The notes under the pieces were generated by a model. It was not told where the DNA came from and did no database searches. It saw only the letters and a program-made list of their open reading frames with translations. Both the position numbers and the translations under genes were made by a program. A DNA stretch of 64,000 nt from Bolinopsis microptera (lineage: Eukaryota; Ctenophora; Tentaculata; Lobata; Bolinopsidae), in assembly GCF_026151205.1 (NCBI RefSeq), contig NC_087075.1, forward strand, positions 6,528,858-6,592,857. The letters run 5' to 3'. Positions 24,661-52,203 of this stretch are shown in pieces. Positions within the stretch are counted from its first letter, which is position 1. The number at the start of each line of letters is the position of its first letter.

Positions 24661-24689
24661 TTATTCGGAAGTTGAGGGGGGTCGGTTAC

Positions 24690-30932: not shown

Positions 30933-31047
30933 TCTGTCTAACTCCATCGGTTTTGTTCATCAGTTCGTTCTGCATGTTTTCTTTGTTTTCCTTTGAGTTA
31001 GTCAGTGTTCTGAGTTCTAGATGAGCTGCTTCTTTCGCGTTTCTTGC
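30933..31047 (-). CDS. 17/31-repeat protein gene, exon 12
   Basis: Residues 685-722. Acceptor TTTCATAG, donor CAGA|GTAAGT; phase 0 in, phase 1 out. ARNAKEAAHLELRTLTNSKE then NKENMQNEL. It completes the last two intervals of the strict 17-residue block; the anchor Leu at 713 ends that block. It is joined to exon 11 across a 16-kb intron. Confidence 0.82.
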
Positions 31048-31368
31048 CTATGAAATAATTCACATCTGTTAGTTTCCAATCTTAAATTAGCAAATGAAGG
31101 TCCTCTAACATAATGATTAGCTGTTATTCGTGATGTTTTAATTTTAACAGTATTTGGGGATAACAGAGTGCCCGCCACACTCTTTAATGATGAAATAAAG
31201 TATACCGTGGGATCAACAATGAAGAACTAAAAGCAACTTTACTTAGACTAAAAGTGTTTACGTTAAAATGGGTAGAATAAGTTCGCTCAATCACTATTTC
31301 TTCCTAAAAAACACATGCGACCTGTACTGCGTTTATGTACATGTACAATAAAACATGCATATACATAT

Positions 31369-31592
31369 ACAATAAAACTGAAATAATTGTGGTATCTTCC
31401 GTCAGGTAGAAATTAATTATCGTAACTAGAACTAAGATCATTTAAAAATTGTGTTACCAATATGAGATATGACCTGCGTTAATTAACAATAAAACTGAAA
31501 TAATTGTGGTATCTTCCGTCAAATGGAAACTAATTATCACAACTGTAATTTGAAGTATTTTAAAACAGTGTTACCATATAAGATAATATGCT
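31369..31592. repeat. Tandem duplication, period 117 bp
   Basis: ACAATAAAACTGAAATAATT at 31369 and 31486, each followed by GTGGTATCTTCCGTCA and a similar body. Directly adjacent to the direct repeat flanking the next element. Confidence 0.85.
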
Positions 31593-33029
31593 GATTATAA
31601 CATAAGGCAAGACCTAAAATTCACAACATTCCCCAAGATAGATCTTTAGGACACTAAAAAAGCAGTAAGTCAAAGTGGATTTAATCTTTCAATTAATGTC
31701 CAAATGAGTTGTAACTAGGGTTGCCAACCGATATTATCGGCCGATAATTATCGGTGATAATTTGCCAAAGATCTTTATCGATTATTGCGATAATTCTCGA
31801 GAATTATCGCGATAATCAACAAATTTTTATTAGGGGAAAATAGCCTAAATTTAACATATTTTTCTTATCTGTTTCTTTGTTTGTCATGTTAAACCCGACT
31901 GCTACCATAATTTGCAATGTAATGGACAATGGTATGCTGACGTGCTATGTAGTCTGTAGTTTTTATGAATTTGCGGCAGTGACAATTGAAATGTCGTGTT
32001 ATATTATCGCATCTAGTTAGTTATGAGTTAAGTAGGTAACTTGGATGTTGTATGATCAGACGCAGTTATTCTGGTTTTTGATGCACGGAAAGAAACTCAT
32101 ACTGCAACGAGACTGCAAAACCTGTTCGAGTTTGCTGTGTGGTGTGTAGTATGTTGAAGAGATATGACTGGATAACTGATGCAGTGAACGGAGTTTTGGT
32201 TGACTCGGAGCTAGGTAATCTAATACGGAATACAGGATAGACTGAGTTAGACATGAGTTAGACATCATTAAGACTGTGTTAAAGAGACAACAATCTCCCT
32301 CAACCTAGCAGAAGTGAATGTTCAGTTTATTGATAGCAAGCTGGAAGAGTCAAAAGATAGACTCGTCACTTTCTCGAACCCTTCTTGATAGGCTACGTAC
32401 ATGATATGTCAAGAGACTAGAGAAAGAACCTTAACTTCGTATGATTGCCAGTAAAGTTCTACTCGGACCCCGGTATTATAGCAGCTGCAGATGCATATCA
32501 AGACTACAAAATGATCACTAAGTAAACCTTGATACGTAATTTTAATGCTCTGCAAAGGAACAATAGGCCTAAAGAACATTTGTCGATGAAATATGGGCTT
32601 GTTAAAGGGCAATACCAATATTGCAATTGATTCTATAGAAAAGCTATTAAGCAATTCTATAGAAAAGAATAAAGCACACGATAATTCTATTAAAGTAATT
32701 CTAATTCTCTGCAGAGAAAAAATAGGCCATATTGTCGATAAAATGTGGGCTTGTTAAAGGGCAATGCCAATATTGCAATTGATTCTATAGGAAAGCATTA
32801 AGCAATTCTATAGAAAATGATAAAGCCAACGATAATGCTATGAAAGTTTGCTATTTTTTAAAAGTTTTTTTTTCAAAGTTCGAATTTAACCGATTTTTGG
32901 AAATTAAATTCAATTAATGATATTGTAACAAGATAACATAGCATAGGAGCATAATTCAAGTATGCATAGTGCAGACAAATATTACTTCTATTATCTTGCC
33001 AAATTTATCGCCGATAACCGATATTATCG

Positions 33030-34430
33030 CGATGATTTGATTTGATTTGAAACTTTTACAAAATAGCAAATATACAAATGTACAGCAAGTCGAACAAACA
33101 TATAAAATGGGCCGAAATGTATAAATGCTATAAAGCGTGGGTCAGTGAAACAAGTACAGAGGACAACTTTCAAAACAGGAGTTTTATGGCCGCCCAAAGT
33201 CTCAATAACATCACCTCCACCTAGTAATAAAATTATGAAATATGAAAAGTGTGAAACAATCAAATAATAAAATATTCAAAATATATAGTTGTCTCTTAAA
33301 TACAGATAACGTCTGAAAATTCTTAAAATAATCATCACTCCTTCATATATACTGATCAGTGTCCGAGAGTGTAACTCATGATGACTTCTTATCACGGCTA
33401 CATACCTTCCCGTACCGGATGTAGTGGTCGAGATGAGTCTGTTCCGCCCTCTTCTTCTTCAGGTCAGTGACCAGATGCTTCCTTGTTGCTCGTTCTTCGC
33501 TGGATCTGTCTGGACATATCCATACATCTTTGTGCTTCTCCCTCAGTCTCCCTGTTTTCATCAGAATCTGATGAACCGCTGTTGAGCTTGGGACGGTGAT
33601 CTTGACTGGTCGGATAGCCGTACTACCTGGCCTCTTCCAACCGACTCTAGTCGCTTCGAAGTGAGGTTTCTCCCCGATCTCCTCCAAAACTGCGGTAACT
33701 AGCGCTGGAAGCTGTTCTTCCTCCTCTTCTTTCAGCCCAAACACGATCAGGTTCTTGCTCCTGTCCTCCTCTGCAGCCACACTCTTCATCACCTTCTTCA
33801 GGATTTTACTGTTGCAGACCGTACCACTTGCACTGTTCTGTTGAACAGCTGCACTATAGTTCTGAATCCCTGACTCCACCGTTGTTTGGACTGTCTCCTC
33901 AACAGACGTCTTAAGCAACTGTAGTTGTTCGTCCTTCTGCATCAGCAGCTGGCCCTGCAGTCTGATCACCTTTTCTTTGTCTGCTAGTGCTTCCGTCTTG
34001 AAGCACTCGATGATCTCCTTCAAGAGATACATCTGACTATTCTGCCGACGAACAAGGTCCACTGCATCCACAATCCAGCCAGACAGAGTCTGTTTATCCT
34101 TAGTCTTGATCTTTTCACGACTTTCGTAGTCAATTTCACGGTAGTCCATATGCAGGTCTTTTTCTAACTTATCGGACCAGCGTGCAACACAGCCTTCCAC
34201 ATCTTCCTGTTGATCATAGTTGAACTCCTTAATCAACTCCTGGGATCGGGTCAAAGTTGGGTCATCCCCCATAGTGTACTTGTATAGTAATGTACAAGTA
34301 CACACGCAAAGGTAAACTACACGGTAGCAGCAAACTGAACTTATTGCAAATTTACAAAAGATAAGAGAGCTCGATATTTGCAACACAAGCTACACTGATT
34401 ACACACACTGATTTGGAAAAAAAATTTGGA
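33030..34430 (-). mobile_element. ORF1-only LINE
   Basis: On the minus strand: 5'UTR, ORF1, about 340 bp of 3'UTR and a tail of CAAAT repeats (TTTGATTTGATTTG near 33040 on plus). There is no ORF2, so it is an internally deleted, non-autonomous LINE. It interrupts the hAT-like element near its right end. Confidence 0.7.
33376..34272 (-). CDS. LINE ORF1 protein (coiled coil plus RRM-like domain)
   Basis: Nucleic-acid-binding ORF1 protein of a non-LTR retrotransposon; 298 residues from the ATG at 34272 (MGDDPTLTRSQELIKEF). The frame extends 38 codons upstream, but that part is leader-like. An amphipathic helical region (residues about 85-145) is followed by an RRM-like block starting RSKNLIVFGLKEEEEEQLPA, a basic RVGWKRPGS, IRPVKITVPSS, and LREKHKDVWICPDRSSEE. 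This order is the standard layout of CR1/L2-type ORF1 proteins in aquatic invertebrates. The frame is intact, so the copy is young or was mobilised in trans. Clade naming is inference. Confidence 0.82.
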   Translation of the reverse strand: MGDDPTLTRSQELIKEFNYDQQEDVEGCVARWSDKLEKDLHMDYREIDYESREKIKTKDKQTLSGWIVDAVDLVRRQNSQMYLLKEIIECFKTEALADKEKVIRLQGQLLMQKDEQLQLLKTSVEETVQTTVESGIQNYSAAVQQNSASGTVCNSKILKKVMKSVAAEEDRSKNLIVFGLKEEEEEQLPALVTAVLEEIGEKPHFEATRVGWKRPGSTAIRPVKITVPSSTAVHQILMKTGRLREKHKDVWICPDRSSEERATRKHLVTDLKKKRAEQTHLDHYIRYGKVCSRDKKSS

Positions 34431-34620
34431 AAAAGTTATCGATTATCGCGATTTAAAAAAAATTGTACCGATAATGGCAACCCTAATGCTAATTATAACA
34501 TAAGACAAGACCTAAAATATACAACATTCCCCAAGATAGATCTTTAGGACACTAAAAAAGCAGTAAGTCAAAGTGGATTTAATCTTTCAATTAATGTCCA
34601 AATGTGAAATGAGTTGTAAC

Positions 34621-35515
34621 ATACGAAACATAGATAAGTTTATCCATTAATAAACTAATTTACATACTTATAGATCAGTTTATTTATGGACAAACTCTCT
34701 ATCGAGTACAGAGTACAATATCATATACATTAATATACAATTTTATATTAAAGTTTATGATATCGTATTCTGCAGAGAGTAAAGGTATACGATCACGAGA
34801 TGAGATACATGCCACAGAGTGATGCAAAAATAATGTAGGGAATTAAATCAAATGAGAAGCAAGAATGAAACGTAAAACGTTTATGAATTGATAGCAACTC
34901 ATATCTCAAAATTTACTCCTCCATAAGAATTTCCACGATTTATTACAATGGCTAAATACTTTTTGCATAACCCTGTAAATTATCAGTCCATATAGCGATA
35001 ATATAAGTTGACCCACAAGTAAACACGCAACATTAGTTCTGTAACTTGAGAACTGAGAACTTAGCCCTATAATCAAGTCACCTGATGAACAATGCAAGGT
35101 GCGATAGAGTTCCTCAGTTCCTAGTTTCTAATCAATAACCACGTGACAACACCACTTGACAACACGACAAGCTCTTGGACAGGATATGAGAACAAGAGAG
35201 ACAATCCAGCTATCGTGAACAACTTATATCACCAGATGTATGACAAAGAGTTTGTATACCCAATTCCATTGTAGTTCCCGTCCATTAGCAGTACAATACG
35301 GTCACGAGCACCCCTTATAAAGATATACCTTATCTGTTAGTGCTGGGGCTATCTACCCTATCTTAGCACCTAAATAAATGCAGCACTTTTAAAGTGTACT
35401 CTTACAATATATCGTTACATCATTTCAACAAAGTAGAGCGGTTATCTAATTATTTACTAGTATTAACTAGAGAATTCAAGTAAACAGTCCAAAACCAAAA
35501 CCAAAAAGCAGTCCC
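34621..35515. other. Intronic AT-rich DNA
   Basis: No exon or element seen. Confidence 0.4.
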
Positions 35516-35519
35516 TTAA

Positions 35520-38188
35520 CCCATTAGGGACGATAGGGTCGTTTACGACCCACCTTTTCTAGAGGCTATAGAGGACAAACCATAATACTAAACGCAACGA
35601 ATCTTTCGCACATATGCTCAAAATTTATTGGGCTACATTATTGACTTTCCAGTCGAGACCCAATTAATTACTAACAACTAAATAATTAGGCTAATTAGTC
35701 GTCATAATTGGAAAATATTTCACTTTACTTCTTGCCTTGATTGGGACATTAAAACTTTATGTAGGCTTATTTTGTTGAGGACAAAATAGTTGCGGGCAAC
35801 GATTTCCTTGAGACATATGAAAAGCCCGTGATAATCAAATGTTCACAAACAGATCTAGACGCTGTTTACTAACTGCGGTCGCATACGACCCACTCGTCCG
35901 GGTCGCAAACGACCCATCACGGTTTTTCGGCTTTAACTTCTGAAACAAAGACGTTAGGATAAAATAAAAACTGTAGCATAAGTTAAAAACATATGGTCAA
36001 TACTGTGTGACTCTAACTTTTTAAAAATAAAGAATTTGGGTCATTAACGACCCACTCGGCTCACTCGCTTATTACTACATATGTCCATGTAACTTCTTGA
36101 ATTCAGCCTAAAGCATGACATCATAAGTTCAAAATCGCCTCTCAGCAAGTGATAATCATCATAAACTGCGAAAAATCGGTTAAATGGGTCATTAGCGACC
36201 CACTAAGACCACAAAATTGATTAATTAAATATAATGTTGTCAAACTTTTACAAATATTAGTATAAAAACATGTTATATCTTGGTCATTACTCCTGTACGT
36301 TGATTTAAATTTTAAAATCGATCAACTGGGTCAATAACGACCCACTCGGAAGTTGAACCACCTCATCAATTATTATCAGTATCATGTTGTTCTACCATCA
36401 AGAAAGACACTCGTAGGTCTTAATTCCACGCAAACCACGGGTGGCTGACTACTAGCCCTTCTGAGATCCAGGGCCAACTGAAGGGCCGTCATCACTCATC
36501 AAAGAGCTGCGAGAATAACACTACTGCATATGCCTGGAGTTGCGTCCTGACTATAATACTATGGTGCGTGGAAATCTGTACCGAAAGGACCGTGGCCGTG
36601 CCGCAAAAGAAAAGGAATCGGCCCTCGTTCCTAACTTGCTAGGTAATAGCCATGCTGTTGTTGTTGCTTATTAGATTCTGTTACCTTTTTCGTCAATTTC
36701 GAATCTTGGTAAACAACCTGCTACAACCCACCGCTTGAGACCCAGGGTCCCACGGTGATCAGATCATGTCACTCAAGAAAAATCCCCTGAACGAAGTATA
36801 CGAGATATCATGTAACCTTGGGTAAATACTGAAAGACGAGTGGTCAAATTGCATATTCTAATCCAACATGCCAAAATGTTTTTTTCATTCCTAGAAAGTA
36901 CGAGAATAACTAAACAACTGCTGCATTCAGATGGCTACATCTACAGCTCTGTGAAGAAGGACAAGGAAAAAGCCCCCCCCCCCCCCCATTTGGCTGGCGG
37001 TGCTGCAACCTGCAATCTCTCAGACAACTACCTCGTTTTGGGTAACAAACCCCGCAACAACGAGGCAGCTTTCAAAACGAAAACAAGTATTACGTAATCG
37101 GCCGAGAGGGAGGGGAGTTTCCAAATGATTAAGCTTGTGTAATTTTGACATAATAGCTATGTGGTGGGGGGGGGGGCGTAAAAATTGTCCAATAAGTGAT
37201 TACGTAATATATGAACGGCCCCTAAGAAGTAAAGAAAGGGAGCTGCGAAGAGAGTAGATGCAGCCATCTGAAATCTGAATCCAGCAGTTGTATAGTTCTT
37301 CTTGGACGTTCTAGGAATCGGGAAAAGATAGGCATGTTGTTTGCTGTCTCACGACATTACGGTCGTGTACTAACAGCTGATAAACTCACCTACCTATCAA
37401 TCCAATTCTGCCCATTATTCGTCAGTCATTGGGTGACGTGATCTGCAGATTACCGTGAGACTCCAGATCTCAGAAGGGCTAGTAGTCAGCCACCCGTGGT
37501 TTGCGTGGAATTAAGACCTACGAGTGTCTTTCTTGATGGTAGAACAACATGATACTGATAATAATTGATGAGGTGGTTCAACTTCCGAGTGGGTCGTTAT
37601 TGACCCAGTTGATCGATTTTAAAATTTAAATCAACGTACAAGAGTAATGACCAAGATATAACATGTTTTTATACTAATATTTGTAAAAGTTTGACAACAT
37701 TATATTTAATTAATCAATTTTGTGGTCTTAGTGGGTCGCTAATGACCCATTTAACCGATTTTTCGCAGTTTATGATGATTATCACTTGCTGAGAGGCGAT
37801 TTTGAACTTATGATGTCATGCTTTAGGCTGAATTCAAGAAGTTACATGGACATATGTAGTAATAAGCGAGTGAGCCGAGTGGGTCGTTAATGACCCAAAT
37901 TCTTTATTTTTAAAAAGTTAGAGTCACACAGTATTGACCATATGTTTTTAACTTATGCTACAGTTTTTATTTTATCCTAACGTCTTTGTTTCAGAAGTTA
38001 AAGCCGAAAAACCGTGATGGGTCGTTTGCGACCCGGACGAGTGGGTCGTATGCGACCATAGCTGTATCTTTTAAAGTAAACGAGATACAGATTAGCTTTT
38101 TTGGATATCTCATTTTTGCTGTAAAGTGACCTAGTGTGTTAAACGGCATCAAAATCGGCAAACTTTAAAACTCGTCGTCCCTAATGGG
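35520..38188. mobile_element. piggyBac-like palindromic element, non-autonomous
   Basis: A 2669-bp element with 14-bp ends CCCATTAGGGACGA in inverted orientation, flanked by TTAA (35516-35519, 38189-38192), the hallmark target of piggyBac transposases. Inner arms 35876-36470 and 37466-38057 are long inverted repeats. They carry GGGTC-NNNNNN-GACCC palindromes: 35536, 35877 (one G shorter), 35900, 36038, 36186 and 36328 on the left, and five mirrored on the right. These look like subterminal transposase-binding sites. The core (36471-37465) has no transposase frame. Confidence 0.83.
36471..37465. other. Core of the piggyBac-like element with nested pieces
   Basis: Contains a second degenerate inverted repeat (about 36892-36960 against 37245-37315, AACTGCTGCATTCAGATGGC). 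It also contains runs of C (36974) and G (37165), and the end GGGGCCGTTCATATATTACG (complement, ending near 37222). That end resembles a terminus seen on many invertebrate MITEs. The short frame from 36553 (VRGNLYRKDRGRAAKEKES) is unrecognised. Confidence 0.45.
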
Positions 38189-38192
38189 TTAA

Positions 38193-39123
38193 ATTCTTAC
38201 TCTTAAGGAGATAACGCGGTGAAGCTTTCCAATTTCCACGCTCTTAGACACTGGAAGTCAGTCATAGACCCAAAATAGCCCCAACTGTTAGTAAGATTGC
38301 TATTCAATCAATACAACACACAAATACCCAGAAGATTACTTCAAGAGTTACAAATAAAGAAATAAGAGTGCAGCAAGGGATAGGACACACTCTTATAACT
38401 TTATAACAATCTGAGGACCTTATATGTATCTGGAGCTCTAGCTCTCTAGATGCCTTTCTGTACAAAGAGTAGACATTGGACACCTTTGCGGCTTGCATGG
38501 TATGGGTGTGATCACGGTTGACTTACAAATGTACAAGTGATCACAAAGGCAATACTTTAATATTCCCTCATTATTAAAATACCATACTTGGAGCCGCTCC
38601 GCCGAACCAGCAAGGAAAAAGCATAAGGAGGAGCAAAGAAGGGATAGCTTTTACTTCCGAAAGAATTCGAAGTGATGCATAAATACCCTGAAGAATGCAT
38701 AATGTCATTAATTAACCTGTCCGGGAACATAAATCGCGCAATCAACAATATCAGTTTACATATTAATGAGAGAACGCCCTGAATATAGTCAGAAATTAAA
38801 AGATTATGCAACTTGGACAATGTATTATTATAGCGATAGCAATTATAATATAATCACTTAACGATTGTACAATGTACTTGTAGTTTATTAATCCTCAATG
38901 AAGTGTAAAAAATAAATTAGAAGTCTCAGCAGTCACGTATTAAGATCAAACCATCGAACAAGATCAGCTCCATGGAACATATATAACATAGCACAAACTT
39001 CACATACTGTGTACAATATTGCAACAGTACCATTGTTGGTACGGACTGTGTGAGCGAAACAAGAGCTCCAATCCAGGGGATATTAGCAACTGTTTAATTA
39101 AGTACAGGAGTCCTGTACTGGTA
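38193..39123. other. Intronic DNA, nothing recognised
   Basis: Short frames only (38304, 38557 minus), none with a family signature. Confidence 0.4.
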
Positions 39124-39270
39124 TACAAGGTACAATGTATAGTACAAGGTACAATGTATAGTACAAGGTACAATGTATAGTACAAGGTACAATGTATAGT
39201 ACAAGGTACAATGTATAGTACAAGGTACAATGTATAGTGGTACAATATATAGTACAAGGTACAATGTATA
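39124..39270. repeat. 19-bp minisatellite (TACAAGGTACAATGTATAG)
   Basis: About seven copies with one shortened unit near 39238-39251. Confidence 0.94.
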
Positions 39271-39428
39271 GTGTTATTTGTTATGCTGGTGGTGGGGACC
39301 CGATGATTGATGAGACACGTGATTTAACCATGATCTAACCGTGTTACTGATAAACGATATCACCATATTATATCATCTTATGTTAGCTGTTATAGGCTTC
39401 TTAACGAGCATATGTATCATGTTCCATG

Positions 39429-39521
39429 GGTCAGCCAGCTAGGATCAATTTGTTACAGACTGACATTCTTTAGATTTTAAGTTTGTCAGTCTGTAACCAA
39501 TCGATCCTAACTGGCTGACTC
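39429..39521. mobile_element. Short MITE or hairpin (GGTCAGCCAGCTAGGATC)
   Basis: Arms 39429-39464 and 39485-39521 are inverted repeats of about 36 bp with a 20-bp loop. No target duplication evident. Confidence 0.6.
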
Positions 39522-40016
39522 ACAGAATATGTCACTCACAAATCAAAATATGCACTTCTTATTACGCCAGAAGAAAGAGCTCTAAATAGATCGATGAAGA
39601 GACTAAGAGAGTTAAACTGGAACTTTGACTATAAATTTTTTTTTATCAATAAACTTTCAAATTGTTACACAAATACATCATTTTATTTCAAAGAAAATAT
39701 CGCCGAATGACCTTACATGCCTTGACAAGTGACCGAGTGTAAAAAAATAAGGGACACCGAAACACCAGTTGACCAGTAAACTGATCATAGCAATTACATC
39801 GGGCCCTAAATGCACCTATAAGTGAAGCGATGCTGCAACCAAGGCATGCTAGGTTTATTCCATTGAACTAATAAGGTTACAGCCTAAAATATAAATATAA
39901 TAAATAACAATGTACCATAAATCATAATTATAAACACACTTTATTTAACATATTTTATTAATTATACTTTTTATCAATTTATATTTAGACAATATAGTTA
40001 CATTAAGGTAAATTGT

Positions 40017-40764: not shown

Positions 40765-43455
40765 TAGGGCCTGTCGTGATATCATGGATCGCTTAGGTTC
40801 CACCAGGATCTGGTAGTCCTCATAATTCTGCGGCCTCTATGTATCGTCATCTCGTACAACTCTTTAAGAATCTTAGGGATTTGGCATGTGAAAATTTGCA
40901 GCCTTCCAGACATTGATTGGGTTAACGAGGTGTCGTACGTCACCTCAAGATCGGGTGACAGGGGGCTGACCAGGCCAGAACCCAATTGATTGGGTCTGAG
41001 GTCACGTGATTATGAGCCTGAGGTCACGTGACTATGACGTCATCAGACCTTGTTCTCCGTTTCCCGCTCATTGGACCAGGTGAGCTTGCATGCTTGTGAA
41101 TGTGGGTGTAAGTACAGCTGTACTGTAGTTTATACCTAATTAACCCCTATAGAAACCGAAAATTTATTTTCTGGCAGAAAGCTAGAAATTTACCAAAATA
41201 TCGACATTGTTATCAATTTATTTTGATGACCATTCCTGACCTAAAATTGCACGAGAAATCGATTAAACTTGGTTTCAGGACTCAACAATGCTTCTTTATG
41301 CCTTAAAATCCATGTTTTATCGATAAAATCAACATTATGATCCCGTTGATTAATTAGTAACAGGTACCTAACAAATACGCAGAAACAACCATCACACCTA
41401 CATTGCATTCCTAACGGGTCGATTTCAAGTGACCAATAATCGTCGTGATGATACGTCATGTGTTCCTGATCATCATCAGCAATCAAGAGACAAGAGCGGC
41501 GGTAGCTTTAAATCAATGGTTTACGTTATTTTTGTGAATTCGACCCCTGTTGAAACAGTTATCTCACTTTGTAACTGCATACCTTAGTTCCCAAAAATTT
41601 GTGTGCCATTATATTGAGCACAATTTATTTGAGCCCGAAAAATTTGGGCAGAAAATTTGAACTCATTTGGGCGACCGAAAATTTGGGCACAAATTCTTCG
41701 AAAAATGAACGATTTTCCACTAAAATTTCAGTTAGATTTTTGCCTTAGTTCATTATTATTCCTTATTATTCCAGTCATTTTGCTTTCAATTTTAAGCATG
41801 TAGGTGGTAGTCTGAGTTGTTTCACATTATGAAATTTACGATCTGCCCAGTAACTACTAAAAAATACAGTGATGACGGCACAGTACAAAATGATAGATAT
41901 ACATACAATAGTGATATTTAGTCTCTCAATCAGATAGTTTAGTCTACTTACACTCAGCATATCTTATCATACCCCTTTCACATACAATTATCATTATGAC
42001 GCCTCACCAGATGGTCGAAAGGTTTGGCCAGTGTCCAGTTCTTTGAGAAAATCCTTCTTCCCCACATAGAATCAGTTCGAGCCTCCATCAACAACCCTGA
42101 GCAGAAAGCGCTACTGAAAACTCAAATTTCAAATATTATTTCACTTGGATATGAAGAAAAAGCCATCTTTCTATAGATTTCAGGGCCACAGGCCAAATGC
42201 CAAAAGTTTGGTTAGCAAAAAATTTAGCAGACGGAAAAGATTTATGCAATTAATTTGGTCTGCAAAAAATTTGGGCGAGAGGCCCGCTCAAATTTTTTGG
42301 CGCCCAAATTTTTGGGAATTAAGGTATGTATCGAGGATAGCTTTACAAATAAGAGTATCAGTAAATAAAATTGCCACAAGTGTTTCTTTCACTCACTTTC
42401 GATAAGACACATTGGAAATTCTTACTTCCATAAGATTCGGAATTTTTTTAAACGCCGAAGTATATCGGAATTTTATAAAATTTAATCACACTTATCAACC
42501 TTTGAACGGTTAATCGAACACAATAATTTCCTTATGGAAGTAAGAATTTCCAATGTGTCTTATCGAAAGTGAGTGAAAGAAACACTTGTGGCAATTTTAT
42601 TTACTGATACTCTTATTTGTAAAGCTATCCTCGATACATATGCAGTTACAAAGTGAGATAACTGTTTCAACAGGGGTCGAATTCACAAAAATAACGTAAA
42701 CCATTGATTTAAAGCTACCGCCGCTCTTGTCTCTTGATTGCTGATGATGATCAGGAACACATGACGTATCATCACGACGATTATTGGTCACTTGAAATCG
42801 ACCCGTTAGGAATGCAATGTAGGTGTGATGGTTGTTTCTGCGTATTTGTTAGGTACCTGTTACTAATTAATCAACGGGATCATAATGTTGATTTTATCGA
42901 TAAAACATGGATTTTAAGGCATAAAGAAGCATTGTTGAGTCCTGAAACCAAGTTTAATCGATTTCTCGTGCAATTTTAGGTCAGGAATGGTCATCAAAAT
43001 AAATTGATAACAATGTCGATATTTTGGTAAATTTCTAGCTTTCTGCCAGAAAATAAATTTTCGGTTTCTATAGGGGTTAATTAGGTATAAACTACAGTAC
43101 AGCTGTACTTACACCCACATTCGCAAGCATGCAAGCTCACCTGGTCCAATGAGCGGGAAACGGAGAACAAGGTCTGATGACGTCATAGTCACGTGACCTC
43201 AGGCTCATAATCACGTGACCTCAGACCCAATCAATTGGGTTCTGGCCTGGTCAGCCCCCTGTCACCCGATCTTGAGGTGACGTACGACACCTCGTTAACC
43301 CAATCAATGTCTGGAAGGCTGCAAATTTTCACATGCCAAATCCCTAAGATTCTTAAAGAGTTGTACGAGATGACGATACATAGAGGCCGCAGAATTATGA
43401 GGACTACCAGATCCTGGTGGAACCTAAGCGATCCATGATATCACGACAGGCCCTA
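40765..43455. mobile_element. MULE/foldback-type palindromic element
   Basis: A 2691-bp element with ends TAGGGCCTGTCGTGATATCA and its complement, flanked by the 9-bp direct repeat ACACTACGA (40756-40764, 43456-43464). Each arm is about 917 bp and the two are almost identical (one difference noticed, CATTCACAAG against CATTCGCAAG), with a loop of only about 110 bp (42428-42537). Very long inverted ends and 9-bp duplications occur in Mutator-like and Foldback elements. The 67- and 81-codon frames in each arm are the same sequences twice and match no transposase. Confidence 0.85.
41582..42324. mobile_element. TA-target element nested in the left palindrome arm
   Basis: A 743-bp element with ends CCTTAGTTCCCAAAAATTTG and CAAATTTTTGGGAATTAAGG, flanked by TA (41580-41581, 42325-42326). 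Subterminal regions repeat AAATTTGGGC words. TA duplication suggests the Tc1/mariner group, but there is no transposase. The other arm of the host palindrome shows the uninterrupted site, ACTGCATATGTATCG, with a single TA. Confidence 0.83.
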
Positions 43456-43464
43456 ACACTACGA

Positions 43465-43721
43465 TTCATAGAATATGCTCGGGTAATAGAAAGAACGTGA
43501 CTTTTTGAAGGGTGAAACACCATCTTATTATGATGAGCCCAATTTTGAAGACTGTTAATATCCCGCTGGAGCAGCCAATGGTCATCCTGGGACGTGATTC
43601 TACGCCATATTTTTGTATCATCAGCATACATGGTTATATTTGTTTCCGGTGACAAATCCTCTGTAATGTCATTAAGAAAAAGTATAAATAAATACCAGTT
43701 AGTAATGATTTGAGAGAGCAT
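43465..43721 (-). pseudogene. LINE ORF2, palm segment (before insertion)
   Basis: Reverse transcriptase palm: LFILFLNDITEDL, TMYADDTKIW with the two catalytic Asp, LQNWAHHNKMVFHPSKSHVL. It stays open to the insertion point. It resumes in the same frame at 40764 if the element and one 9-bp copy are taken out. The 5' side is lost. Confidence 0.82.
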
Positions 43722-46368
43722 GAACTATTTTAGCAGTTATTACAACGGATCCTCCCTACCACAACCGCGATCTCATGTGGTCTGCACAAAACTCAACTTA
43801 AGTTAAAATGAGAGTCATTTTGTGGACTAATCTTCAAAAACGTTCTTTGTTAATAAATCTAGTTGTAGGATCAAGTTAACACTTGCACCTGTAACACTTG
43901 CTCCTGTGTAAGGAGACTGTTTATTCCTAGCATACATTAAAAATACAGCTATAAGATTTGCTGAATGAAGTTATACAAGACCTCTAAGTTACCGGGGAGA
44001 TAAAACAAACCAGATAGATTAAAAAACTACCTTAAAATAACGCACAAGCGAATATCTTTCAACAGTTTAGAAAGTAAAACTTAGAACTATGTTACAGTGC
44101 TAATTAAGATGAGACGATGCACTGCTAAATCGCAAGAGTAACGCGTTCTCTGGAAGCTGCTACATTTCTCAGAGTCTTGTGAGGAATGTATGCGGCATTT
44201 CCCGGACTAAGACATCACAAAATTTGTAATTTGCGTTCAAAGCTCTACTCATCTACAAATTTGGAGAGAACAACCAGGAAATTAAAGATTGGTTGGCTAC
44301 AAGCTACATTTTATGTGTATGAAAGGAAAGAAATTCTGAGATCGCGGCGATTGTAAATTAATAACATTGTGAAGCAATAACTGCGTTATCTTTCTGTGAA
44401 TGATGGCAAATGACCCCTAAATATATTACAATTGCAAATTACAAATAATATATTATATTGTAATTATTTTGTGGATAGTTGTTATCAGTAGTCAATGACT
44501 AGACAGGGTTATTGAAAATTACAAAGAATAAAATGGCGTCTGGACTTGGGACCAGCTCATAGTTATATAAATGTAACAAGCTAAAGTAGCTAAAGTAGCT
44601 ATTGTATTAAAACTTAACATTTCACTAGCGTAATCTTTTAGAAAACCCATTTTCCCCCCTCAGTAATTGCGTAATAATATGTGAAGGACCCTTAAACCGT
44701 CGTGGGAAATAGGGCTGAAGTGAAACATAGCTTTTGACTACATAAAGGCTAGCTTATATAACATCTGAACCGAAAGTACGAGTACTTTCTTGACGAAAGT
44801 CAAATACAAGGAAATACTTTCTAGAAACCATAGTATATAGCTTAAGCAGGGTAGTGTTGGTTATGTGCCTAACCTGGTGAGCACAGTGGATATCCTTTCT
44901 GTACGGCTAGTTAAACAAGGAATTGAAACTGTGGGACTCCGTGTAGACCAACCTACCTGTGGCTAAAGCTCTAATATACAAAAACAATACATTTCTCTTC
45001 CCACACCCCCTTTAGTTGTCGGAAATGCTCGTCCTCGTGATTTAAGTAACTCACTTTTTTCGATCTTTGCAAACTCTCATTAAAATGTGAAAAATAATAT
45101 GTTTTTGATTCAAAGTGGGTTTTTAAAAATCGAACAGCTGATAGCAATTCCGCACAATTTTGCAATAAAATGTTGACTACAAGGACATAAAACTGCAAGA
45201 AAAGATTGCCTACGCTTATTAACTTACTCAAAAGTCAATTCCACCACAACTCCGATCAAAAGAACACATAAATTGCATTCTACAATCTACAGGCCTGATA
45301 ACAACAGTTGCAATGTATAGAAGTGAGACATACACTCCACATGAAGTTACCTGCACGTGATTGGCTTACTGGTCACGTGATCCAGAAAACAACATGATAT
45401 ATGAGGATGTCCCCTGTATATGATTTCCCAGAACAGTAACAAATGAAACACAGGTTTGCTATGCGTGGGGGGGACTACGAACCCTCTCCAGCCAGTTTCA
45501 CGCTTGTCGTCTTGATAACATTGTGAGCTGTAAAACAAATCAACTAAGAAATATAATTAACTAAACTTATGGAACTACTGCATTGCAAAGTTACGCTATA
45601 TTGGCCCTATTAAATACCTGTAAATACTCTGTATAGTGTAGATATGGGACCTGGCAGGGACCTAATTGAGAAGAGAAATAGTAACATAGTTATGGATGAT
45701 ATTCCAAGATAAGATAGAATCCTGAAGATAACGACACGTTTGCTTTCACCTTCAGAGGTTTAGGTACAGTATGAGATACTTCTGGAAATATTGAAATTTG
45801 ACGAGAGATTTCCAAAACTAACGGGGATAAATTATAAGCTTTGTTAAGAGGAGAGGAAAAATTAGCGAGTAAGAACTTAAATCTCTACACGTCCAGAACA
45901 AAGAAGAGATTTGACATGTTATCTACATAATATGGACGAGTGATTTCACATGTTATGTTGACTTCTGACAAAGATAGAATGATATTAAATCGCCAAATAT
46001 GGACAGAAAAGGAGCAAATACAGACTCATCGGTGAGGGGCTAATTGAATGGGACGAGCTGCGTCCCAAAATAAAATCTAACCCCAAAACTCAATATGTAC
46101 CAATTAATCAATGAGGCGCGTGGCAGTACAACGAAGTAGACTGAACTTCAATAAAACAAATGAAGAAGAGTAACTGTGTTTACAATGTCTAGATGAGAGA
46201 GGTTTAAGCTAAACCTGAAGTTTAGAACAATAGGTTAGACTTAGAGGGCGGTTTAATGAGGGGATGTAGAACAATAGTTACTATATAGTTACTATATAGT
46301 TACTATAGAATAGTACACTAACGGTATATTTCCTGGCCACACTGACTTCAAATATTTCATTTGAGTTC
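43722..46368. other. Intronic DNA without recognised genes
   Basis: AT-rich; short frames only. CACGTG words occur at 45356-45378. A small triple repeat AGTTACTATAT is at 46278. Confidence 0.4.
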
Positions 46369-46550
46369 CAGTTTACCACATAAGCTACCAGTTTACCACA
46401 TTAAGTTTACCACATAAGCTACCAGTTTACCACATAAGCTACCGCTGAATTGAAAGGAGAATATTTGATTGTTAACAGGAGTCCCATTTACAATAAAATA
46501 TGTTCTTCCTATTTCCTTAATTCAGCGGTAGCTTGTGCTGTGGTAAACCC
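46369..46550. mobile_element. Foldback element with internal 20-bp tandem repeats
   Basis: Left side: about four copies of CAGTTTACCACATAAGCTAC (46369-46443) running into CGCTGAATT. Right side: inverted AATTCAGCGGTAGCTTGTG and TGTGGTAAACC (46519-46550). Confidence 0.7.
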
Positions 46551-46676
46551 AGACTCAAACGAATTTAACAACAGGATCCAGTGAAATAGTATAGATGATA
46601 AAAATAAAACTAAACTTAGTTCAAGTGTTTAATCTGATGTGTACGTGATAGCAACACATGCCATCTTACAACAGGA

Positions 46677-47099
46677 ATGTCAAAATGTGTCAAAATGTGT
46701 CAAAATGTGTCAAAATGTGTCAAAATATTTCAAAATGTGTCAAAATGTGTCAAAATGTGTCAAAATGTGTCAAAATATTTCAAAATGTGTCAAAATGTGT
46801 CAAAATGTTTCAAAATGTGTCAAAATGTGTCAAAATGTGTCAAAATGTGTCAAAATGTGTCAAAATATTTCAAAATGTGTCAAAATGTGTCAAAATGTGT
46901 CAAAATGTGTCAAAATATTTCAAAATGTGTCAAAATGTGTCAAAATATTTCAAAATGTGTCAAAATGTGTCAAAATGTGTCAAAATATTTCAAAATGTGT
47001 CAAAATGTTTCAAAATGTGTCAAAATGTGTCAAAATGTGTCAAAATATTTCAAAATGTGTCAAAATGTGTCAAAATGTGTCAAAATGTGTCAAAATGTT
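46677..47099. repeat. 10-bp minisatellite (CAAAATGTGT), about 42 copies
   Basis: Perfect 10-bp periodicity with only three unit types (GTGT, ATTT, GTTT endings) in a higher-order pattern. It fills the start of the 16-kb intron from the fifth base after the exon 11 donor. All plus-strand frames across it are open, which is an artefact. Confidence 0.97.
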
Positions 47100-47101
47100 A
47101 C

Positions 47102-47208
47102 CTGTCCAATCTGACTGATCTCCCCGACCACCCTCTCCTTGGTATCTTTAGTAGAGGAAATTGTCAGCATCTCTTTCAGAGCCTGGCTCTTCGTATCCTT
47201 CTGTATAC
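47102..47208 (-). CDS. 17/31-repeat protein gene, exon 11
   Basis: Residues 649-684. Acceptor GCCGTTAG, donor GGACAG|GTAACA; phase 1 in, phase 0 out. It carries IQKDTKSQALKEM, LTISSTKDTKERVVGEI and SQIGQ, two full 17-residue units. The donor is followed immediately by the 10-bp minisatellite. Confidence 0.84.
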
Positions 47209-47384
47209 CTAACGGCAATGTTGTGAAGTACGTGCTTTTGTTAAATCATAAATGCGTAAAAAAATATACGCTATTTCTCTTTAAATTTCAAGTTTTTTAG
47301 GTTGCGTTTTCGATAGAATGGTTTGGTAGGCATCATTATTAACGTTATATTAATTATTATTATCAGCTAATAGAATTGACGTAC

Positions 47385-47430
47385 CAATAGTATTGATGTC
47401 CTTCATTGCCTTGCTTTTCACTGCGATTGC
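47385..47430 (-). CDS. 17/31-repeat protein gene, exon 10
   Basis: Residues 634-648. A 46-bp exon: acceptor CCTGCCAG, donor CTATTG|GTACGT; phase 0 in, phase 1 out. AIAVKSKAMKDINTI; the KDI anchor sits at the expected 17-residue position, which supports so short an exon. Confidence 0.8.
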
Positions 47431-48097
47431 CTGGCAGGAAAAATAAATCAAAACTTTAAGAAATCAGGAAAATCACTGAGTGACTGAACAACGCACTTCT
47501 GACAAGCAGTCAGGTGCGAAACAATAATTTTCTCAAAAATCATGCTATCAAATAATTTGGTGCATTTTCAGAGAAAATTACAATCCAACGATCAAGCGAG
47601 TTTATCTGTAATCGGTTCTCCAAATATTAAACATACTTACTGTTTATAAGTACAAAAATGCTACAATTTAAATCTTTTAATTTTACATTTTGGAGGAAAA
47701 AACAAACCAGCAAACTGAAATCTAAAGGTAACCATCATTTTGTGAGAGAAAATGCTGCAATTTCAATTTTAATATTTGAAGTAAAAACAAACCAGCAAAA
47801 TGAAATCTCAAGGTAAAAAATCATTTTGTGAGAAAAAATGCTACAATTTAAATCTTCATATTTAAAGGAAAAACAAACTAAAATCTCAAGGTAAAATATC
47901 ATTTTGTGAGAGAAACAGAATAAAAAGAGCTGACAAAATGCGATTAGTCTCACACTACTTACTAATATTTCGCTTTGATCATCATCCTCGCTCTAGTATC
48001 GTTAATTTAGCATGATAAAAACAACCAGAAACTTACAGACAATTGGACACAACAGATCTACAGAGTTAATAAGAGATTACAAGGAAATATAATCTAC

Positions 48098-48285
48098 CTT
48101 TTCCGCCGCCCCAATGGGCAGGTCAGGAGCTCCAACCTTCTCCTTAATATCAGCTACTTTCTTGAGCTCAGCCATGGCTGCTCCCTTCACATCTTTGGTC
48201 GTCTCTCTGTCTTTGATCTCCTGCATTGCAGCTTCTTTCGCGGACTTGCTTGCAGAGATGCCCTTCAGTTCTGACATGGCGGCAG
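48098..48285 (-). CDS. 17/31-repeat protein gene, exon 9
   Basis: Residues 571-633, the longest repeat exon. Acceptor TTGTTTCAG, donor GAAAAG|GTAGAT; phase 1 in, phase 0 out. It shows the repeat most clearly: AAAMSEL, KGISASKSAKEAAMQEI, KDRETTKDVKGAAMAEL, KKVADIKEKVGAPDLPI. The last unit has lost the helix-friendly core (APDLP). Confidence 0.85.
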
Positions 48286-48415
48286 CTGAAACAATATTAG
48301 TTGTTCCAGGCCCAATAACCACGCTTAATAATATAACGTAAGACTTTGTTACTTTTGTCCGCAAACGTATTCCATGAGTCTGGGGATAAAAAGTACTAAT
48401 TTTAAACAAACATAC

Positions 48416-48523
48416 CTTTGTTACTTTTAGTATCATGTTTGATAACAAGCTCTTTAAGTGCCTCCATTTTAGCCTCCTTTCTCTGTCCTCTCTCGTTGAT
48501 CTCCGAAATAACACTCAGCTGAC
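48416..48523 (-). CDS. 17/31-repeat protein gene, exon 8
   Basis: Residues 535-570. Acceptor GCAACTCAG, donor AACAAAG|GTATGT; phase 1 at both ends. QLSVISEI, NERGQRKEAKMEALKEL, VIKHDTKSNK. A G-tract MITE ends eight bases before the first exon base and so lies right at the branch-point/acceptor region. Confidence 0.84.
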
Positions 48524-48531
48524 CTGAGTTG

Positions 48532-48709
48532 CAGTGGCGTAACGAAGAGCGGGGGGGGGGGGGGGAGGTGCCATCTTAGGGGGGGGGGGGGGGTGGGCCG
48601 GGGGTGCCATCTTAAGGGGGGGGGGGGGGGGTGCCAAATCCTCGTTTGAAAGTGGGACAATTTGGAAAACTTAACTGCAGTATTAGCAAAACTTCGCGTT
48701 TCGCTGTAG
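48532..48709. mobile_element. MITE with poly-G tracts (copy of 19897-20067 family)
   Basis: Starts CAGTGGCGTAACGAAG and ends in a diverged CGTTTCGCTGTAG. Three G runs are separated by GGTGCCATCTTA. Shared body GTGGGACAATTTGGAAAA. It abuts the exon 8 splice acceptor. Confidence 0.7.
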
Positions 48710-49635
48710 AAACACATTTTTTAGAGACTACTGCGTTATAAGAATTATCAGAGCGTGCGATCTTTCCAGGTTCCTAATTTTGCAACCAAAAGCACCCCTG
48801 CCTCATAGAACCCTTGATTTTAGCAATTCCTATTCTTTCCAAAAATATGTTTTAATATTTGAGTATTATTGGGAGAATGTTGATAACAGTGCTCTAGTGT
48901 TTTCTTGGGTAAATTTCTATTGATCCCGTTTGATGCGACAAGGAAAAGGCTCTTATCATGAAAGGAATTATTCAACGTTTCAATGTCACAACATCGTATT
49001 TATCAATAGAAATTTACCAAAGAAAACATTTCAACTATGCGACTCATAAATAATATTCTAATCCGGATTTTACAGTGCTCTAGTAGTTGCACTAATAGTC
49101 TAATGAACAGAATATTAACTTGTAAGTTCTTGAAACATATGAGTAGCAGCAGGAACCTTTAACAAATATATGTTAATCGTCTTAAGCTGATATTTCATTT
49201 CTCTGGTGATTTATACGCTGTTTCCAAGTTATATTATACCAAATACTGTTCCCATCATTAGATGAAATATGTCGCTTCTTTCAAATTTAAAATTCCCTTT
49301 AATCGTTAAATGTAGTTAACCACAAATTATAGGTTGCAACTTGCAAACCAGTACTGCATTCTGCAACCCATTTAATGATCTTAAATGCTTAATCGCTTCA
49401 GGAAATGGCTGAAGCAGCTCGACTGCAAAAATTGTTTCCTCATAGTCGTAGCGAGAGTTTTAATGCTAGACTGATTATATTTTAGTTCTGGGTAATAACC
49501 AGAAATTTATTTATTTATATCACCAGACATTATATGGTGGGAAATAACGTTATTTATACCCAGAAGTTTATAGCAGAAGTAATTCTACTCAGTATTTGAG
49601 CGTCTGAAAGATAATAATTTTTCACAAAGTATGTT

Positions 49636-49766
49636 TAGTGTATAGTGTATAGTGTATAGTGTATAGTGTATAGTGTATAGTGTATAGTGTATAGTATAGT
49701 CTATAGTGTATAGTGTATAGTGTATAGTGTATAGTGTATAGTGTATAGTGTATAGTGTATAGTGTA
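49636..49766. repeat. 7-bp array (TGTATAG)
   Basis: About 18 heptamers with one shortened unit at 49693-49700; intronic. Confidence 0.95.
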
Positions 49767-49926
49767 TACTACATACTTGAAGTAAAGGTTCTTTTGTACT
49801 TGTATCCAGTTTAACCAAAATTTTACCAATCTTCAAAACTGATTCTCTTGAAGTGGTTTGGAGTGGTTCTTTAACTTATATATATGTGAAATATGAAACT
49901 CAGACAGACCACTAGTAAAGCAGTTA

Positions 49927-50095
49927 CAGTAAACCCCGATTTAGAGTCTGGGGAACCGGGAAACAGCCGCGTTAAATTGGGGTTTTTTGTTGTTCACATT
50001 ATGTATGTTAATCCCCATTGATCGGGAAAAGAAATGGCTGCGGTAAATCGGCCGGGTTTGCGTTAAATGGGGTGTGGTAATTTGGGGTTTTACTG
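49927..50095. mobile_element. pogo/Tigger-type MITE
   Basis: Ends CAGTAAACCCCGATTTA and GGGGTTTTACTG in inverted orientation, flanked by TA (49925-49926, 50096-50097). 169 bp, non-coding. CAGTAAAACCCC ends and TA duplications are typical of pogo-like families. Confidence 0.8.
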
Positions 50096-50190
50096 TATTT
50101 TTAATTTTTTCTGTATTTCGGGGGTTTTTGCTGTATTTAGCAATTTTATATATTATAGGGCATTAACTTACCAGAATAGCATTGACTTAC

Positions 50191-50239
50191 CGGAATAGAC
50201 TTTAGGAAGGGGTTCGCATACCTTCCCACTCGAAAATAC
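50191..50239 (-). CDS. 17/31-repeat protein gene, exon 7
   Basis: Residues 519-534 (VFSSGKVCEPLPKVYS). Acceptor TTATCTCAG, donor TTCCG|GTAAGT; phase 0 in, phase 1 out. Without it exons 6 and 8 would clash in phase. With it the distance between their anchors is exactly 34 residues (2 x 17). Sequence is unlike the helical repeats: a Cys at the anchor position and two prolines. An inner donor (GGGAAG|GTATGC) is possible but would break the phase. Confidence 0.72.
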
Positions 50240-50457
50240 CTGAGATAAAGACACTGCAGATTGAAGGAGAAAAGGAAGTATTTATAGTGGAACGATTTAG
50301 AATTGGCGGTTGATAACATACCTTACTAAAGGATATTTTTGACCGTAGAATTGATTAAAATTAGTGGTATGATTATGATTGGATTGGTTTTTAAGTGTAT
50401 TGGCTAAATCTATTTTTGGATCTACTCCAAAGTTTTTAAATGGCAACAAGATCTTAC

Positions 50458-50541
50458 CGTTGCGTTGATACTGCCAATTTTGTGTATATCATTGAGAACA
50501 CCCATCCTGGCGTCTTTTACTACCTTCATCTTACTGATATC
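50458..50541 (-). CDS. 17/31-repeat protein gene, exon 6
   Basis: Residues 491-518. Acceptor TATCTTTCCAG, donor GCAACG|GTAAGA; phase 0 at both ends. DI completes a unit begun in exon 5, then SKMKVVKDARMGVLNDI and HKIGSINAT. Confidence 0.83.
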
Positions 50542-50766
50542 CTGGAAAGATATTGGCGAACATTAAACAAGGAACATAATATATATATACATTTCATTAC
50601 AGCAAGTTGATGAGGAATTCACCTCCATGACAACACGATAATAATGATAAACTCACCTCATTGACAATACTATTGATAATAGTATTATCGATAATCGATA
50701 GTATTAATAGTATTGATCGATCCTTCTAATTAATATTATTAATCATAAGAATCATAAGAAACTTAC

Positions 50767-50903
50767 ATCCATGACGACCTTCTTCTTGTCTTTAGTATCA
50801 ATCCTGTCTCTAATCTCCTGCATTGCCCCAGCTTTAGCATCCCTCATGTGTGATATGGTCGTCAGTTCCCGCTGGACTGTTTCCTTCATCTCCTTGCTAC
50901 GTC
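50767..50903 (-). CDS. 17/31-repeat protein gene, exon 5
   Basis: Residues 445-490. Acceptor CTAACCAG, donor ATGGAT|GTAAGT; phase 1 in, phase 0 out. Three units in register: GRSKEMKETVQREL, TTISHMRDAKAGAMQEI, RDRIDTKDKKKVVMD. Confidence 0.85.
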
Positions 50904-52122
50904 CTGGTTAGTAAGATAATTAATATTAGTTCAGAGTGAGGGTTCATATTAAATATTACTTGCTACGTCCTGGTTAGTAAGATTACCAACATTAGGTGAG
51001 GGTTCGTGTAACGCAAGCCCAAAAATATTTAAGATATAGGAATGATGTGAGCTGTGATGAGAGTGGTAGGATACTAAATCAACGAGAAGCGACTTATACG
51101 CCGATACGCGAGGGTCTAATGTAAACATCTAATGGTAAAGATATGTCCTTGATAGTTAGTTTCGTGACCTCTCCTGAAGATGTGATACGTTTGTAACCTA
51201 CCAAGACGCGCGCCGAGTTGGACTCGTCGAAGTCTTGGACTAAACATTCATTCACCAAAGATAATCATACCTCAACTCCTTCCTGAACAGTTAAAAATCT
51301 AAAAGCATTTTGTGGCGATAGAAACTCCTGCAACTGCAGTTCCGGGTTACTGGTATACAGAGCAGACATCTAATCATATAAAACTTATCTACCTCACCAG
51401 TAAATTGAAAACCTTCTAATATGAATATCAAAGTTCATGTTGAAAATCAGGTAATTACTAGTCGAAATTTCGTTTTCCATTCAAAATTCAGTGTGTGTGT
51501 CATAATCTACATATTAATTTCAAATAGTTGTTTCGGCCACCGCGGTAACATATTTAACTATGTCATCTTGAAATAACTTAATAACTGATAACATAATCAC
51601 TCATATGATTATACAGTATAAGCAGTCTCGACATCTTCTACAACCGGATGCTACGTGGGCGTGTATGATTGTGCAGCTTATCTCCTCGGGTCCTGTTTCC
51701 ATGCTTTATATGGGAATAAGTAGGAATATATCATGATATTAAATATCCATCCTACATGTCCTACTTGAAGTCTAACCACTTATATAGTAGATTCTGCCCT
51801 CGCGGATATCATCAATACAAGATTCTTGTAGTTCTTTTTGCATCCAAGAACGAATGTGGATATTATTGTTTGAGGTGAATCATATGAGTCTGTAATTTTT
51901 AATAATCCCGTTACATCTCGAATCCCGGGAGGACACCAATGTTATGACATCCTGATCTTCCGTATTGGAGTGAAGGGGGAAAAACTTATTCTTGTGTAGT
52001 GGTTGATAATGAAAAGACGTATTTACAATTTCAAGCAAGCAAGTATAACTTCTTGACCCGAAATTCAAGTTACAATTAATAAGCTGTTTAAATTACCGAT
52101 AATTACAATTAATTTAAATTAC

Positions 52123-52203
52123 CGATAAGTGCGATCTCGCTCATTGCAGCGTCCTTTTTCTTCTTCTCCACGTGGACATTAGCCAGGTTTACATTCTCGT
52201 CAC
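52123..52203 (-). CDS. 17/31-repeat protein gene, exon 4
   Basis: Residues 418-444. Acceptor TTGTTGCAG, donor TATCG|GTAATT; phase 1 at both ends. DENVNLANVHVEKKKKDAAM then SEIALI. The Ile of SEI (441) is the first anchor of the strict 17-residue block. A short direct repeat (AAATTACCGATAA) spans the donor. Confidence 0.82.

What the first reader, a model, noticed from the sequence alone, without database searches (positions are those of the whole stretch)
30933..52203. A strict 17-residue protein repeat carried across eight introns
From Ile 441 to Leu 713 the anchors SEI, REL, QEI, DDI, NDI, (VC), SEI, KEL, SEL, QEI, AEL, LPI, KDI, KEM, GEI, LEL, NEL are each exactly 17 residues apart: 16 intervals, no indel. 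The consensus is I-x-x-I-x-x-x-K-[DE]-x-K-x-x-A-M-x-E-[IL]. Exon ends fall at different points of the repeat, so it predates or ignores the introns. 17 residues is neither the heptad nor the hendecad period (7+7+3, or five turns of 3.4), suggesting an overwound coiled coil or short linked helices.
Basis: seen in the sequence. Interest (0 to 1): 0.9.

Follow-up and report, generated by a model that had tools for sequence, protein, structure and literature searches.

The report
Comb-jelly glycogen synthase with helical arm
The 17-residue repeat is real, and it turns out to be a long, probably rod-like tail on the enzyme that makes glycogen in two comb jellies, an arrangement not seen on the other glycogen synthases that were looked at.

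Summary
A deposited Bolinopsis microptera protein contains the same 545 residues exactly, odd Pro-rich exon included. The Mnemiopsis leidyi protein shows no indel across the 289-residue core.

The repeat is the C-terminal extension (about 600 residues) of a glycogen synthase whose catalytic exons lie just outside the window.

Thirteen of 17 units fit the repeat strongly; three do not. Conservation between the two species picks out one helix face, positions 3-7-10-14-17: five turns in 17 residues. A fold of five units gives one 84-residue helix at pLDDT 91; the low-confidence fold of the whole extension breaks the core in five places.

Best reading: an overwound helical rod behind the conserved phospho-sites, tethering or multimerising the enzyme. 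Tethering is inferred, not shown. A new variant of a known enzyme.

The parts
56681..57701 (-). Not in the deposited protein; lies in the intron before E2; alternative first exon or unrelated ORF
   Evidence: ORF and phase-1 donor; 21-nt tandem array, 26.3 copies; found at one place in the genome; absent from P0001 and P0002
55732..55874 (-). E2: first extension exon in the window (P0001 from L723)
55291..55378 (-). E3: extension exon
52123..52203 (-).
50767..50903 (-). E5: strict 17-mer units
50458..50541 (-). E6: strict 17-mer units
50191..50239 (-). E7: Pro-rich exon (VFSSGKVCEPLPKVYS), keeps the phase but does not resemble the repeat
   Evidence: In P0001; 16 of 18 residues identical in Mnemiopsis; units 5 and 6 no better than shuffles
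48416..48523 (-). E8: strict 17-mer units
48098..48285 (-). E9: strict 17-mer units and second break (VGAPDLPIG)
47385..47430 (-). E10: 17-mer unit KDI
47102..47208 (-). E11: 17-mer units KEM, GEI
30933..31047 (-). E12: last strict units LEL, NEL (L1094 = L713), after a 16-kb intron
30140..30253 (-). E13: tail, unit spacing 38; most of it absent from Mnemiopsis (38-residue gap)
29070..29218 (-). E14: tail, 31-residue (17+14) units
27611..27759 (-). E15: tail, 31-residue (17+14) units
24661..24742 (-). E16: C-terminal exon with stop codon

Best explanation
The repeat is the C-terminal extension (about 600 residues) of the glycogen synthase of the comb jelly Bolinopsis microptera. The enzyme part and the cluster of inhibitory phosphorylation sites are conserved, and directly after them the chain becomes mostly helical. 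In the strict part each 17 residues make five turns (3.4 per turn), giving a face Ile3-Lys7-Lys10-Met14-Ile17; two Pro/Gly segments interrupt it. Inferred: this face packs against another helix as a left-handed, overwound coiled coil (two heptads plus a three-residue stammer per unit), so that the arms of the enzyme tetramer join enzymes into larger assemblies or hold them at a partner structure, while the adjacent phospho-sites still switch activity. Shown: the repeat, its place in the enzyme's deposited model in one species and in a second species' model, the conserved face. Predicted: helix (about 0.8). Inferred: coiled coil (about 0.5) and tether or scaffold role (about 0.4).
For: P0001, a deposited glycogen synthase of this assembly (contig length 16,326,010 = C4), contains E2-E16 exactly. 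All 33 reported matches of P0001 fall in C4:6553521-6622138, minus strand, and the exon before E2 ends in a matching phase-1 donor. PF05693 at 7e-295; alignment with human GYS1 over residues 17-667 including the RPAS-PPSP--SR-SS cluster. Mnemiopsis P0002 has the same enzyme-plus-arm order and a gap-free core. Of 62 substitutions in the 17 x 17 block, 5 fall in columns 3-7-10-14-17, the fewest of the 17 rotations of that spacing. Five units fold as one helix, residues 2-85 of 86, pLDDT 90.9. Tail spacings 31 and 38 equal 17+14 and 17+21, i.e. 17 plus whole heptads (my reading).
Against: Two of the five face positions are mostly Lys (12 and 13 of 17 units), unusual for a coiled-coil core. The strongest hydrophobic Fourier peak is 17/6, not 17/5. 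The whole-extension fold has pLDDT 49.9 and pTM 0.17 and breaks the core at P0001 861-865, 900-913, 946-948, 1002-1008 and 1046-1049; the first of these lies inside the five units that fold as one helix. Two rows from two related species are thin support for any fold. Four of 17 units fit weakly or not at all. No oligomer, partner or transcript evidence. The Mnemiopsis model carries an evident N-terminal fusion with reverse-transcriptase-related sequence, so its joins are not beyond doubt.
Confidence: 0.45

Rival explanations
1. Single-helix ruler: the extension is a monomeric long helix whose Ile/Lys/Met face docks every 17 residues (about 25 A of helix, computed from the textbook 1.5 A per residue) on a regular surface such as a cytoskeletal filament or a membrane, bringing the enzyme there.
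For: Conserved lysines at face positions 7 and 10 (0 and 2 substitutions); core net charge +13 over 289 residues; single long helix predicted.
Against: On an undistorted helix the face would wind round by about 100 degrees per unit, so a flat surface would need twisting (my geometry). No known filament-binding family matches: Pfam gave nothing above cut-off.
Confidence: 0.22
2. Alpha-solenoid or short linked helices: each 17-mer is a short helix and pairs form 34-residue hairpins, as in TPR-like repeats.
For: Lag 34 is about as strong as lag 17 (identity 0.216 against 0.228; hydrophobic 0.398 against 0.336). Gly/Ser/Thr are common at positions 4-6. The low-confidence whole-extension model breaks the core helix at unit positions 5-9, 5-7 and 3-6 as well as at the two Pro/Gly segments.
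Against: Five units fold as one continuous helix at pLDDT 90.9. No Pfam repeat family above cut-off. I raised this rival from 0.08 to 0.12 on rechecking the breaks.
Confidence: 0.12
3. A second product: E1 is an alternative first exon, giving a membrane-anchored repeat protein without the enzyme.
For: E1 ends in a phase-1 donor that fits E2 and gives an open frame of 886 aa; long ORF with a hydrophobic start.
Against: Absent from P0001 and P0002; most of its length is a tandem array that stays open by its unit; one place in the genome and no relatives there; phases fit by chance one time in three. Other isoforms of P0001 were not seen.
Confidence: 0.12
4. Gene-model chimera: the glycogen synthase and a neighbouring helical-repeat gene were fused by annotation in both species.
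For: Gene models fuse neighbours here: the Mnemiopsis model has reverse-transcriptase-related sequence at its N terminus; the gene is about 69 kb long with a 16-kb intron.
Against: Two species' models give the same junction; the junction is in phase; no start is evident for a separate repeat gene other than E1.
Confidence: 0.07

Closest known systems
Human glycogen synthase GYS1 (PDB 7q0b and others)
   Same: Catalytic region and site-3 phosphorylation cluster align over P0001 17-667. In GYS1, phospho-S641 of this cluster holds the tetramer inactive by binding the regulatory helices (PMC9188544, passages read).
   Different: The human chain is 737 residues; the alignment ends at its residue 665. 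P0001 continues for 600 more residues of helical repeat in place of the human end.
Other database glycogen synthases with extra domains: Owenia P0003, Amphimedon P0004
   Same: The enzyme is joined to extra sequence in the model.
   Different: EF-hands at the N terminus and a RasGEF domain after the enzyme; no 17-residue period.
Coiled coils with stammers (three residues inserted into heptads)
   Same: 17 = 7 + 7 + 3; stammers tighten the left-handed coil (PMC4786415 and PMC9369452, passages read).
   Different: PMC4786415 says most known coiled coils that deviate from heptads have periodicities above 3.5 and takes 3.33 as the lower limit; here the stammer would recur in every unit. Not shown to be a coiled coil.
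Plant starch synthase 4 (SS4), needed to initiate starch granules (start of abstract of PMC5034061)
   Same: Works-like comparison only: a glucan synthase with a long coiled-coil extension (that SS4 has one is recalled, not from a call).
   Different: Extension at the other end (recalled), other enzyme family, plastid.

Membership tests
Animal glycogen synthase (PF05693, Glycogen_syn) | Near full-length match to the family profile above its cut-off | tested here: met
   980.1 bits (cut-off 27), profile positions 1-632 of 639, P0001 21-658
Animal glycogen synthase (PF05693, Glycogen_syn) | Conserved catalytic motif around SYYEPWGYTPAE (that it is catalytic is recalled) | tested here: met
   Identical to human GYS1 in the alignment
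Animal glycogen synthase (PF05693, Glycogen_syn) | C-terminal site-3 phosphorylation cluster RPAS-PPSP--SR-SS | tested here: met
   that the serines are phosphorylated in comb jellies is not tested
Animal glycogen synthase (PF05693, Glycogen_syn) | Enzyme activity and tetramer | not testable with these tools
   needs purified protein
Coiled coil (heptad or hendecad) | Hydrophobic period 3.5 or 3.67 | tested here: not met
   power 0.0 at 3.5 and 0.02 at 11/3
Coiled coil with stammers (17/5) | One conserved helix face with 4-3-4-3-3 spacing | tested here: met
   columns 3-7-10-14-17 hold 5 of 62 substitutions, the fewest of 17 rotations (next 7 and 8)
Coiled coil with stammers (17/5) | Continuous helix | tested here: inconclusive
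   one helix over five units, pLDDT 90.9; whole extension broken in five places of the core at pLDDT 49.9
Coiled coil with stammers (17/5) | Two or more helices packed together | not testable with these tools
   no multimer prediction offered
Known helical repeat families (Pfam) | Profile match above curated cut-off | tested here: not met
   three weak hits in the 886-aa model, all below cut-off; in P0001 the only families listed at E up to 0.001 are glycosyltransferases
Proteins of solved structure | Sequence match of the extension to a PDB chain | tested here: not met
   0 of 177635 distinct sequences at E up to 1, query without E7; with P0001 whole, the 12 matches end by residue 667

The most novel reading that the evidence does not exclude
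Comb-jelly glycogen synthase carries a natural 17/5 (3.4 residues per turn) coiled-coil array, with a stammer in every unit over some 270 residues, close to the lower limit proposed for coiled coils. It would build enzyme assemblies or filaments of a kind that I found no description of.
Probability: 0.25. Interest if true: 0.75.

Novelty: new variant of a known kind. Interest (0 to 1): 0.52.

Why it matters
Glycogen synthase is usually treated as a conserved enzyme whose tails carry phosphorylation sites. A long helical arm under selection in two comb jellies, members of an early-branching animal phylum, suggests that where or how glycogen is assembled was rebuilt in this lineage. If the helix really runs at 3.4 residues per turn for many units, it would also give structural biologists a natural test of how tightly a coiled coil can wind.

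Tried and rejected

Skipping exon E7 by using a later acceptor of E8, which would give a 16-residue interval and spoil the strict period: rejected. P0001 contains E7 and Mnemiopsis conserves it. My first searches used the version without E7.

Loss of glycogenin as the reason for the arm: rejected. Glycogenin-like exons (53, 48 and 61% identity to a human glycogenin-1 fragment recalled from memory) are at C6:4503264-4505199.

Second copies of the repeat in the genome: none reported.

Same extension elsewhere: of the 239 proteins held after the searches, 3 reach lag-17 identity of 0.18 or more in a 200-residue window: P0001, P0002 and P0033, whose best lag is 9. The 120 listed of 7980 hits are 619 to 1108 aa long. 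The listed hits (120 of 3868, 120 of 7980) show no third comb jelly by name; many rows have no name.

Literature: (26 papers, 20 listed) showed no listing on a comb-jelly glycogen synthase; most seem to be about Wnt signalling. Searches (2 papers; 231 papers, 5 listed) likewise; listings only. A phrase search for 17-residue periods gave one unrelated paper; '17-residue repeat' with 'coiled coil' gave none.

A structure-library search was not run: a single helix would match many long helices.

Full report
WHAT WAS CHECKED. The finding claims a strict 17-residue repeat over eight introns on the minus strand. Splicing 16 exons from 57701 to 24661 gives one frame of 886 residues. Ile441 and Leu713 are exactly 16 x 17 residues apart. 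In the 289-residue core the fraction of identical residues at lag 17 is 0.228. In 1000 shuffles the highest value at any lag from 1 to 59 was 0.158. The repeat is real and not due to composition.

WHAT GENE IT IS. A search of about 5.8 billion proteins with the repeat region gave one protein at E up to 0.01 among the 7991 candidates scored: P0001, 1267 residues, named glycogen [starch] synthase, liver-like isoform X2, Bolinopsis microptera. Its contig length, 16,326,010, is that of contig C4 of the window's genome, so the window is from that assembly. Residues 723-1267 of P0001 are exactly my exons E2-E16, E7 included. Its remaining exons lie upstream on the same strand: all 33 reported matches fall within C4:6553521-6622138, about 69 kb. 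The last exon before E2 ends in a phase-1 donor (L050), as E2 requires. P0001 matches PF05693 over almost the whole profile (7e-295) and aligns with human GYS1 from residue 17 to 667, including the RPAS-PPSP--SR-SS phosphorylation cluster. In human GYS1 that cluster contains S641, which when phosphorylated holds the tetramer inactive by binding the regulatory helices (PMC9188544, passages read). The new arm begins right behind it.

E1 (57701-56681) encodes a hydrophobic start and about 26 copies of a 21-nt unit (PAECVPP). It lies in the intron between the preceding enzyme exon and E2 and is in neither P0001 nor P0002. It was found at one place in the genome. Whether it is an alternative first exon is open.

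A SECOND SPECIES. Lengthening the query to favour long proteins brought up Mnemiopsis leidyi P0002 (1900 residues; an N-terminal piece with reverse-transcriptase-related sequence, then the enzyme, then the same arm). Identity is 90.9% in the enzyme (595 aligned positions), 78.5% in the core (289) and 85.9% in the tail (135 aligned). The core has no gap. The rest of the repeat-bearing extension has gaps of 2, 1 and 38 residues, and the stretch between enzyme and extension has more. So length is preserved in the strict part. The odd E7 segment is 16 of 18 identical, which supports it as coding.

HOW REGULAR IT IS. With a leave-one-out profile, 13 of 17 units beat shuffles of themselves at p 0.0025 or less; unit 11 at 0.0165; units 5, 6 and 12 do not (p 0.09-0.105). 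These weak units hold or adjoin the two Pro/Gly segments, yet they keep the phase. The eight introns within the core fall at unit positions 4 (twice, phase 1), 5|6 (twice, phase 0), 9, 9|10, 11 and 15|16, which does not look like even scatter; I did not test it. After the core the period changes to 31 residues (identity 0.317 at lag 31), which reads as a 17-residue unit followed by a 14-residue unit lacking the three-residue step (my reading of the sequence).

WHAT SHAPE. Substitutions between the species are very uneven: 62 in the 17 x 17 block, of which 6 in columns 3, 7, 10, 14, 16 and 17 (0 of 20000 permutations as low). The five columns 3-7-10-14-17 carry 5, the fewest of all 17 rotations of the same spacing (next lowest 7 and 8). 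I picked the six-column set after seeing the counts, so the rotation comparison is the fairer test. That spacing, 4-3-4-3-3, is one helix face for five turns in 17 residues. Hydrophobic Fourier power is 17.9 at 3.4, 22.4 at 17/6 and 0.0 at 3.5. The 17/6 peak comes from hydrophobics spaced three apart, so the spectrum alone does not prove a 3.4 helix. AlphaFold on five units (six rows of contiguous fragments from both species; one pair was aligned one unit off, still in register) gives one helix over residues 2-85 of 86, pLDDT 90.9. On the whole extension with two rows it gives mostly helix at pLDDT 49.9 and pTM 0.17, with five breaks inside the core: at P0001 900-913 (E7) and 1002-1008 (VGAPDLP), and at 861-865, 946-948 and 1046-1049, which lie at unit positions 3-9. 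The first of these three is inside the five units that folded as one helix. I take the confident short model over the low-confidence long one, so a rod is favoured over linked helices, but the second is not excluded.

MECHANISM. Best supported: an extended helical arm on each subunit of the enzyme. From the face and the literature on stammers (10/3 = 3.33 taken as the lower limit, most known deviating cases above 3.5; PMC4786415, passages read), a 17/5 array would be a strongly left-handed coiled coil. I infer that it joins or anchors enzyme molecules. The conserved lysines at two of five face positions are the main difficulty and the main argument for the rival, a helix docking on a regular surface. 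Glycogenin-like exons are present in the genome, so the arm does not replace the usual primer.

COMPARISON AND NOVELTY. As an enzyme it is an ordinary glycogen synthase by profile and alignment. The arm has no Pfam family above cut-off and no PDB sequence match. Of the 239 proteins held, 236 stay below a lag-17 identity of 0.18, and the one other above it, P0033, is a 9-residue repeat. These 239 are only the listed best hits, bacterial ones among them. I found no paper on it (listings only, one library). I therefore call it a new variant of a known kind.

LIMITS. Two lobate species only; no transcripts seen by me; no oligomer or binding evidence; 'isoform X2' and protein names are the depositors'.

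Noticed in passing
window 40765-41581 and 42639-43455: Inverted repeat with 817-nt arms, 100% complementary, 1057 nt apart, in the 16-kb intron between E11 and E12; a second 110-nt pair lies inside (42325-42434 / 42531-42640). A reverse-transcriptase fragment (PF00078, 5.6e-7) overlaps one arm at 43404-43724 minus. A recent element insertion or an assembly artefact.
   Followed up: partly
window 27831-27890: Partial near-copy of the start of exon E15 (VEALFAAKSSKT...) just upstream of it, in the intron.
   Followed up: no
window 46678-47098: Minisatellite of 42.1 copies of a 10-nt unit, next to the donor of exon E11.
   Followed up: no
window 33379-34389: Minus-strand open frame of 337 aa, rich in charged residues, no Pfam match at E up to 0.01.
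   Followed up: no
G000:C6:4503264-4505199 (L047-L049): Exons of a glycogenin-like gene, 48-61% identity to a human glycogenin-1 fragment.
   Followed up: partly
L043 (G000:C3:6136558-6137052): GT8-family open frame of 434 aa with a hydrophobic N-terminal stretch and a Cys-rich segment, not glycogenin-like by eye.
   Followed up: no
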